Positions 25,009 through 56,404 of a stretch of DNA of 64,000 nucleotides are shown one piece after another. The stretch comes from Crateriforma spongiae (GTDB lineage Bacteria > Planctomycetota > Planctomycetia > Pirellulales > Pirellulaceae), in NCBI RefSeq assembly GCF_012290005.1, contig NZ_JAAXMS010000012.1, positions 1 to 64,000 on the forward strand, given 5' to 3'. The notes under the pieces are model-generated. The model had not been told where the DNA came from. It worked only from the letters and a program-made list of their open reading frames with translations, and did no database searches. The position numbers and the translations under genes were made by a program. How positions within the stretch are numbered: the first letter of the stretch is position 1; each line of letters starts with the position of its first letter.

Positions 25009-25531
25009 GGTGTGTGTGCCCGCAGAGAGAACGTGGAATACGATGAACCGCTTCGGCATGTCGATTCGGTTCGGCGTATCGGAGGACGAGATCCCGTCAT
25101 CTTAACAGCCTGTCGAATGCCCGATCTTTTCTTTAGTCGATGCGTTCGATGCAAATTTACTGATTCTTCAGGCAATGCCCCACAGACACTTCCTGAGTGC
25201 ACCTCACGACCACAATCGTTCTGTATCGCTTGAGTAGGCGGACAGATCACTTGAGTTCAGCAACTCAACGCGTAGGCAAGAAACGAAACCGCGAATATTG
25301 CCGTTGCTCGGTTACGCGTTTTGAAGTTGCGATTCACTGGTCAACCGACGCGTGAGCGAGGAAACAATGATGTTGACATCGCCTCGCTCACGCTTCGGGT
25401 TACCCAAAAACCAATGTCTCGGGCAAATGCGCAGCTTCGAAACGTACGCGTCGTTTTGCCATTTGTCACAAAACTCCTGTCCACCTGCTTAGATGAACGC
25501 ATGCTTCATTGGACACGTCACGAACACCGAC
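25009..25531. other. Intergenic region holding MITE-like element A
   Basis: About 520 bases between the sulfatase start and the sulfotransferase stop. Half of it is the repeat element at 25230-25492. The remaining 220 bases next to the sulfatase should contain its promoter, but I see no convincing boxes and no gene. Confidence 0.6.
25230..25492. mobile_element. MITE-like element, copy A
   Basis: This 263-bp non-coding element has imperfect terminal inverted repeats, TTGAGTAGGCGGACAG (25230-25245) and CTGTCCACCTGCTTAG (25477-25492), pairing at 12 of 16 positions. Inside is a 77-base left arm, a 116-base central block (25323-25438) bounded by GAAGTTGC and GCAGCTTC, and a 38-base right arm. The central block holds a long hairpin with stems containing CGTGAGCGAGG and CCTCGCTCACG. 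Copy B at 55862-56123 has the same plan and lengths, but its central block is reversed. No transposase or clear target duplication is visible. Confidence 0.8.
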
Positions 25532-55823: not shown

Positions 55824-56404
55824 TCCATAATCCAATGTTTGCGAAGCGACGGTGCTGCTTTCTAAGTAGGCAGACAGATTCTCTAAAGTTTAGTAAGCCG
55901 ACGCGTAAGCGAGTAACGAATCGGCAAAGACCGCGGTCCTCGCTCACGCGTTGGGAAGTTGCGCTTTTACCCGAGGCCTTGATTTCTTGGTAACCCGAAG
56001 CGTGAGCGAGGCGATGTCAACAACATTTTTTCCTCGCTCACGCGTCGGGTTGCCAGAAAAAGCAACTTCAGAACTTACGCGTGGGATTCCCATTCGTCGC
56101 AAAACACCTGTCCGCCTGCTTAGCCCCACGGCGCGATAGCAGTCACTGCACAGCGTAAAGACCACTGTGGGAAATTTGCCTTGACAATCAAGCCAGGCAA
56201 TAGCACGATAGTGCCACGCGAGTGTTAACAACTGCGTTGCCGAAGGCCTGGCGCCGGTGTCGCAGGTGATGACAAATCCACCGCCAAACGCCGGCGACGG
56301 CCGTGTCGGACAGCACCAACGATCGGGCCTGACACCCGGTAAGTTGCCTGCCTCCGCTGCCCGCTTTTCTTTTCCCGCCCTCCTTTCCCGCCGGTGACCA
56401 CATC
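55824..56404. other. Divergent rhaA-regulator control region with MITE-like element B
   Basis: About 580 bases between rhaA and the AraC-family gene. The first part is occupied by the element at 55862-56123. Toward the regulator, TTGACA (56181-56186) with CACGAT 17 bases on is a weak promoter candidate on the plus strand. No gene is seen. Confidence 0.5.
55862..56123. mobile_element. MITE-like element, copy B
   Basis: This 262-bp element has terminal inverted repeats CTAAGTAGGCAGACAG (55862-55877) and CTGTCCGCCTGCTTAG (56108-56123), pairing at 14 of 16 positions. The left arm is 77 bases and the right arm 38, exactly as in copy A and in the same orientation. The 115-base core (55955-56069), bounded by GAAGTTGC and GCAACTTC, matches the reverse complement of copy A's core; its loop AACAACATTTTTT reads reversed in copy A. 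The core forms a hairpin from ACCCGAAGCGTGAGCGAGG and its near-complement. It sits 38 bases upstream of rhaA. Confidence 0.82.

What the first reader, a model, noticed from the sequence alone, without database searches (positions are those of the whole stretch)
25230..25492. MITE-like element whose core is inverted relative to its second copy
Copies A (25230-25492) and B (55862-56123) have matching 16-bp terminal inverted repeats and arms of identical length (77 and 38 bases) in the same orientation, yet the central 115-116 bp is reversed. The loop sequence inside the hairpin (AAACAATGATGTTGACATCG in A) matches copy B at 18 of 20 positions only as reverse complement. The core is bounded in both copies by GAAGTTGC and a near-complement, so recombination or replication across this inner repeat could flip it. 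Nested inverted repeats with a switchable core would be a new type of small bacterial repeat.
Basis: seen in the sequence. Interest (0 to 1): 0.82.

Follow-up and report, generated by a model that had tools for sequence, protein, structure and literature searches.

The report
Nested hairpin elements, either orientation
The flipped piece is a small mobile DNA element sitting in the stem of another small repeat, and such elements can land in either direction; only the short hairpin at its centre was seen to have turned round in place, probably by a known kind of copying slip.

Summary
In detail: A and B share outer arms in one direction, and their ~124-bp cores match only as reverse complements (85.5% against 66.9%). 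The 'switchable core' reading is not supported. The core is a separate MITE with TIR TTTTGAAGTTGCG and solo copies with 8-bp target duplications (39 of 64 flank positions match over 8 copies, P about 1e-8). It sits in the hairpin stem of an outer 'shell' repeat, which also occurs alone. The favoured site, ~CGCGTAAG, lies in both shell stem arms; cores point 7 one way and 7 the other relative to it. In the one same-genus genome found, orthologues of A and B keep the core's direction. A smaller flip does occur: B's inner 66-bp hairpin is inverted between the two species (score direct 63, inverted 112; four control pairs direct), and in 3 of 30 callable copies the loop is turned against its arms. 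This fits template switching between inverted repeats (PMC8604942). Unresolved: one orthologous solo site with opposite cores of different subfamilies; the shell's own mobility (no clean empty site); both transposases.

The parts
25230..25318 (+). Copy A, shell left arm: outer TIR (25230-25245) plus 5' side, loop and 3' stem arm of a degraded shell hairpin
   Evidence: 71% to shell-only copy C1:505940-506063 over about 90 bases
25311..25318 (+). Left copy of the 8-bp target duplication of the core in A (GTTACGCG)
   Evidence: 6 of 8 match the right copy
25319..25442 (+). Core MITE in A, called direction +
25339..25404 (+). Inner hairpin of core A; 23-nt stem arms, loop 25362-25381
   Evidence: (87% complementary)
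25443..25450 (+). Right copy of the target duplication in A (CGTACGCG)
25443..25492 (+). Copy A, shell right arm with outer TIR at 25477-25492
55862..55950 (+). Copy B, shell left arm: outer TIR (55862-55877), shell hairpin 5' stem, loop and 3' stem arm
55943..55950 (+). Left copy of the 8-bp target duplication in B (CTCACGCG)
   Evidence: 7 of 8 match
55951..56073 (-). Core MITE in B, direction opposite to A
55989..56054 (-). Inner 66-bp hairpin of B, inverted relative to the orthologous locus in G001; loop 56012-56031
56074..56081 (+). Right copy of the target duplication in B (CTTACGCG)
56074..56123 (+). Copy B, shell right arm with outer TIR at 56108-56123

Best explanation
A and B are two-layer nested elements. 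The shell is a ~120-bp hairpin repeat with MITE-like ends TAAGYAGGCGGACAG. The core is an unrelated ~124-bp hairpin MITE with TIR TTTTGAAGTTGCG that makes 8-bp duplications and favours sites like CGCGTAAG^CGAGG. The shell's stem carries that site in both arms, so cores land in either arm and either direction; A and B are two such states. After insertion the core's inner hairpin sometimes turns round in place or has its arms made alike, most likely by DNA polymerase template switching between the stem arms (strand exchange in a cruciform would look the same). Shown: core and shell each occur alone, core duplications, both directions, one hairpin inversion between orthologues. Inferred: that A and B stem from separate insertions, the shell's own transposition (TA target suggested only), the transposases, the template-switch step.
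For: (1) Core without shell: 8 copies, 39 of 64 flank positions identical, P 1.3e-8 at an assumed chance of 0.27; best AGCCTTCG/AGCCTTCG. No shell arm within 130 bases: best score 27, against best scores 74-90 and 62 in three control shells. Uninterrupted relatives of that target repeat stand in G000. (2) Shell without core: C1:505940-506063, C2:70.9k, C8:248.8k, C6:365.3k. (3) 14 of 22 end-complete copies have direct 8-bp flanks, 7 inverted, 1 tie. (4) Direction relative to the target 7:7 (two of the 14 are orthologues of each other). (5) Orthologous A, C12:108k, C4:681k, C11:74k and B keep the core direction. (6) Hairpin inversion at B against G001:1889.6k: direct 63, inverted 112; 4 control pairs all direct. 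(7) Arm homogenisation at C11:74k / G001:3641k: AAGCG against ACGCG in one, ACGCG on both sides in the other.
Against: No clean empty site for the shell: at G001:3259k the right flank matches G000 for 931 bases (88.9%) starting at TA, but the left flank has no BLAST match and only weak similarity (14 of 2000 shuffles reach it); at C7:163k both flanks match but G001 has about 680 other bases in place of the element. No transposase found for either layer; by eye the only longer element with core TIRs on both sides holds a Y1 transposase gene. 8 of 22 copies lack direct flanks and need later deletions. At C4:243k / G001:2955k orthologous cores point opposite ways. Only two genomes were seen to carry the composite.
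Confidence: 0.82

Rival explanations
1. The whole core is a switchable segment that flips in place by recombination across its own GAAGTTGC inverted repeats.
For: A and B have the same arms and position but opposite cores. At one orthologous solo site (C4:243k / G001:2955k) cores point opposite ways.
Against: Direction conserved at 6 of 7 orthologous loci compared. Insertions in two different stem arms cannot be turned into each other by flipping the core. Solo copies show that the core inserts on its own. At the exceptional site the G000 core is closer to another subfamily (79.8% to G001:3259k) than to its orthologue (73.4% inverted).
Confidence: 0.07
2. Shell and core moved as one composite: a few founder composites were copied as units, so the copies reflect few core insertions.
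For: C7:163k aligns with G001:5256k and 3259k over about 262 bases in the same layout (78-79%). G001:3259k and C7:163k are absent at the matching place in the other genome, though loss is as possible as gain.
Against: Both directions occur in the 5' arm and both in the 3' arm (read), so about four founders would be needed. Not exclusive with the best explanation.
Confidence: 0.08
3. REP/RAYT-type repeats moved by a Y1 (HUH) transposase rather than TIR transposons.
For: One Y1 transposase gene (G001:1573015-1573284) sits inside a shell between cores. RAYT genes flanked by TIRs are described, and R. baltica is named as rich in tyrosine transposase genes and flanking repeats (PMC3733652, passages).
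Against: Y1/HUH transposition is not expected to make 8-bp duplications (recalled). Only 1 of 19 Y1 hits in the two genomes lies in a shell. The matching place in G000 holds only a shell remnant.
Confidence: 0.03

Closest known systems
Bacterial MITEs
   Same: 70-300 bp, TIRs, no coding capacity, strong secondary structure (as defined in PMC3733652, passages); target duplications (recalled)
   Different: TIR of the core is 13 bp (that paper gives 15-30). Two unrelated elements nested, one in the stem of the other; partner transposases not found
REP palindromes as targets of insertion sequences
   Same: A palindromic repeat serves as favoured landing site (stated in PMC3733652, passage)
   Different: Here the lander is itself a small hairpin element, so hairpins are stacked
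IR spacer inversion and arm homogenisation by template switching (PMC8604942; abstract and passages seen)
   Same: Spacer turned round between inverted arms, and arms made alike, seen by comparing relatives
   Different: There spacers of 2-5 bp in yeast coding genes; here a 20-nt loop or a 66-bp hairpin in bacterial mobile repeats

Membership tests
MITE (core) | Terminal inverted repeats | tested here: met
   TTTTGAAGTTGCG / CGCAACTTCAAAA; 22 of 23 copies tried had both ends, 43 of 44 ends with 0-3 mismatches, one with 5
MITE (core) | Constant-length target duplication | tested here: met
   8 bp: 39 of 64 positions over 8 solo copies; 14 of 22 copies direct, 7 inverted, 1 tie
MITE (core) | Short, several copies | tested here: met
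   122-126 bp except one of 144 with an internal duplication; 35 copies or part copies scored in two genomes
MITE (core) | Autonomous partner with the same TIR | tested here: inconclusive
   TIR pattern with up to 1 mismatch in both genomes, read by eye: none except one around a Y1 gene
MITE (shell) | TIRs and several copies without the core | tested here: met
MITE (shell) | Target duplication with empty site | tested here: inconclusive
   Right-hand orthology begins at TA in two cases, left flanks do not confirm
IS630/Tc1-mariner derived MITE (shell) | DDE_3 transposase in the genome | tested here: not met
   PF13358 over cut-off in 0 of 2 genomes
REPIN / RAYT system | Repeat flanks a RAYT gene | tested here: inconclusive
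   1 of 19 Y1_Tnp hits in a shell
REPIN / RAYT system | GTAG or CGTC tag at one end of the hairpin | not tested
   not scored
Invertible switch element | Both directions at one locus within one strain, with a recombinase | not testable with these tools
   no reads available; between species whole-core direction is the same at 6 of 7 loci

The most novel reading that the evidence does not exclude
The hairpin in the core is a recurrently invertible DNA segment in intergenic positions. At B it lies between divergent rhaA and an AraC-type gene and points opposite ways in two species, so its direction could tune expression like a slow, recombinase-free switch.
Probability: 0.05. Interest if true: 0.7.

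Novelty: new variant of a known kind. Interest (0 to 1): 0.36.

Why it matters
It shows one small bacterial repeat serving as a favoured landing site of another, with hairpins stacked inside hairpins. It also gives a natural record, at orthologous loci in two species, of hairpin inversion and arm homogenisation. And it warns that an inverted core seen between two copies in one genome need not be a switch.

Tried and rejected
Whole-core switching was tested through orthologues and rejected as the main cause. An IS630-type source for the shell: PF13358 over cut-off in 0 of 2 genomes. Rfam: no match in the window at gathering scores. Relatives: 24 of 60 genomes had some match; among the rows listed (not all were), matches longer than 120 bases were only in G000 and G001.

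Orthologue placement by flank pieces: 8 pieces from G001 gave 4 good places in G000 and one weak one; 6 pieces from G000 gave 4 in G001. Of these 8 places, two showed half-deleted shells (C2:70k, C6:365k); four gave no convincing alignment near the element (s2567, s4095, s7150, C1:505k) and I draw nothing from them. The remaining two I first took for empty sites of the shell with TA duplication. On checking the left flanks neither is clean, so the claim was lowered to 'suggested' and confidence in the best explanation from 0.85 to 0.82.

Rows dropped: truncated or hairpin-less copies C8:257k, G001:7139.9k, C4:519k and G001:3835k were not scored for loop direction. Of 35 scored, 5 had arms too diverged to call, so the loop count is 3 discordant and 27 concordant of 30. 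Tandem copies at C11:74k and G001:3641k are not independent. C4:243k failed the end search and enters with 0 of 8. s3318 counts as inverted but matches 6 of 8 directly if its left end is moved two bases. One solo copy, G001:3170k, has 2 of 8 and a stem-like left flank. The 7:7 count includes one orthologous pair (C12:108k and G001:1832k).

Folding of single strands does not prove a cruciform in the cell. Literature: eight searches of the open-access library, listings read, showed no title about nested MITEs of this kind in planctomycetes; most subscription papers are not held.

Full report
What was checked. Copies A (25230-25492) and B (55862-56123) are as described. Direct comparison: left arm 71.9% direct against 61.8% inverted, right arm 82% against 62%, core 66.9% direct against 85.5% inverted. 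BLAST of A against its own genome finds B's core best on the other strand (84% over 127 bases, E 2.1e-32). The inversion between the two copies is real.

A family in two layers. That search and one in 60 relatives found more copies in the window's genome (G000) and in G001, the only same-genus genome among the 60 (one contig of 7.18 Mb). Reading them shows two separate elements. The shell occurs alone (C1:505940-506063, C2:70.9k, C8:248.8k, C6:365.3k): a ~120-bp hairpin with ends like TAAGYAGGCGGACAG and a loop like AACGAACCGGCGAAGAACGCGG. The core occurs alone in G001 (2955.6k, 3096.8k, 4131.6k, 3238.5k, 2544.2k, 6958.3k, 3170.7k) and in G000 (C4:243k; C4:519k with its hairpin deleted). It is ~124 bp, with TIR TTTTGAAGTTGCG and its own hairpin. 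The eight solo copies scored have no shell arm within 130 bases (best score 27; three control shells reach 62 to 90).

Core insertion. Over the 8 solo cores the 8 bases on either side match at 39 of 64 positions (P 1.3e-8 at an assumed chance of 0.27): 8, 7, 6, 6, 5, 5, 2 and 0 of 8. Uninterrupted members of the best copy's target repeat in G000 read GAGCCTAAGCGAGG or GAGCCTTAGCGAGG. In shells the flanks resemble CGCGTAAG or its complement. Over 22 copies with both ends, 14 have direct, 7 inverted and 1 undecided flanks. The shell's stem carries CGCGTAAGCGAGG-like sequence in one arm and its complement in the other, so it offers the target twice. In the 14 direct-flank copies the core points 7 times with and 7 times against the target (two of the 14 are orthologues). 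A TIR element without directional preference would give this, and it explains A and B.

The shell's own movement. At G001:3259.9k the right flank matches G000:C4 for 931 bases at 88.9%, beginning exactly at a TA; the left flank shows only GACACTA and weak similarity beyond it (14 of 2000 shuffles reach the score). At C7:163k both flanks match G001, again beginning at TA on the right, but about 680 other bases stand in place of the element. So the shell is absent there in the other species and TA may be its target, but a clean empty site was not found.

Orthologues of A and B. The region of A matches G001:1918.9-1921.3k at 89%, that of B matches L141 at 82 and 93%. At A the core has the same direction in both species; the shell loop is missing in G001. 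At B the core arms also keep their direction, but the 66-bp inner hairpin is inverted: alignment score 63 direct, 112 inverted. Four other orthologous pairs give direct 112, 99, 84 and 116 against inverted 67, 48, 39 and 77. In G001 both the loop and the AAGCG mark of the stem lie on the wrong side of the arms, so G001 probably carries the derived state.

How often the hairpin turns. Of 35 copies scored, 30 have arms and loop called; 27 agree and 3 disagree: C8:308k in G000, and 2567k and 1889k in G001. In 2567k and C8:308k only the loop is turned and the stem mark is in place; in 1889k the mark went with the loop. Different breakpoints inside one stem suggest separate events. At C11:74k / G001:3641k one arm has been made like the other. 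Spacer inversion together with arm homogenisation is what template switching between inverted repeats is reported to leave (PMC8604942; abstract and passages seen). I infer that mechanism; recombination in a cruciform would look the same.

Results against the reading. At C4:243k / G001:2955.6k, orthologous by flanks (87.7% over 1963 bases), the cores point opposite ways. The G000 core is of another subfamily (79.8% to the G001:3259k core, 73.4% to its orthologue even when inverted), so replacement or a second insertion at the same favoured site is likelier than a flip, but a flip is not excluded. Several copies with inverted flanks lack the shell loop; I suppose deletions ending at the core's TIR, untested. 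No transposase was identified for either layer.

Surroundings. A lies between a sulfatase and a sulfotransferase gene; B lies between rhaA and an AraC-type regulator gene read in opposite directions.

Verdict. This is a nested pair of known kinds of element, with an attractive detail: one small hairpin element using the stem of another as landing site, and hairpin inversion seen between orthologues. On present evidence it is not a new type of switchable repeat.

Noticed in passing
55836-56404: Element B fills much of the intergenic region between divergent rhaA (minus strand) and an AraC-type regulator gene (plus strand), starting 26 bases beyond the first start codon of the rhaA frame; the orthologue in G001 has the hairpin inverted.
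   Followed up: partly
L094 (G001:1571900-1574800): A Y1 transposase (RAYT-like) gene at 1573015-1573284 lies inside a shell between core copies, one of them followed by partial tandem hairpin copies; the matching G000 site (L050) keeps only a shell remnant.
   Followed up: partly
L017, L018, L019, L021, L022 (G000) and L094 (G001): A third element with ends like TAGGCACTGTTTATCAATT carries nearly the same stem (CCCGACGCGTCAGCGAGG); five copies in G000 and one in G001 that abuts a shell at a shared TA. The same stem thus sits in three different TIR elements.
   Followed up: partly
L045 (C11:74.2-74.8k) and L096 (G001:3641k): The core, with a repeat like GTGAGCCGCAGGGCGCTAGCCGCGGGTT beside it, is present twice in tandem in both species.
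   Followed up: no
C11:74k; G001:1920k, 2567k, 3641k: The core replaces the shell loop, leaving inverted instead of direct 8-bp flanks, as an adjacent deletion ending at the core TIR would leave.
   Followed up: partly
L050, G000:C3:505.8k: A shell remnant in which the two stem arms are joined without a loop (AACCTGACGCGTCGGGTT).
   Followed up: no
L317 (G001:773k) against C7:163k: About 680 bases of other sequence stand in G001 where G000 has the composite element, between matching flanks.
   Followed up: no
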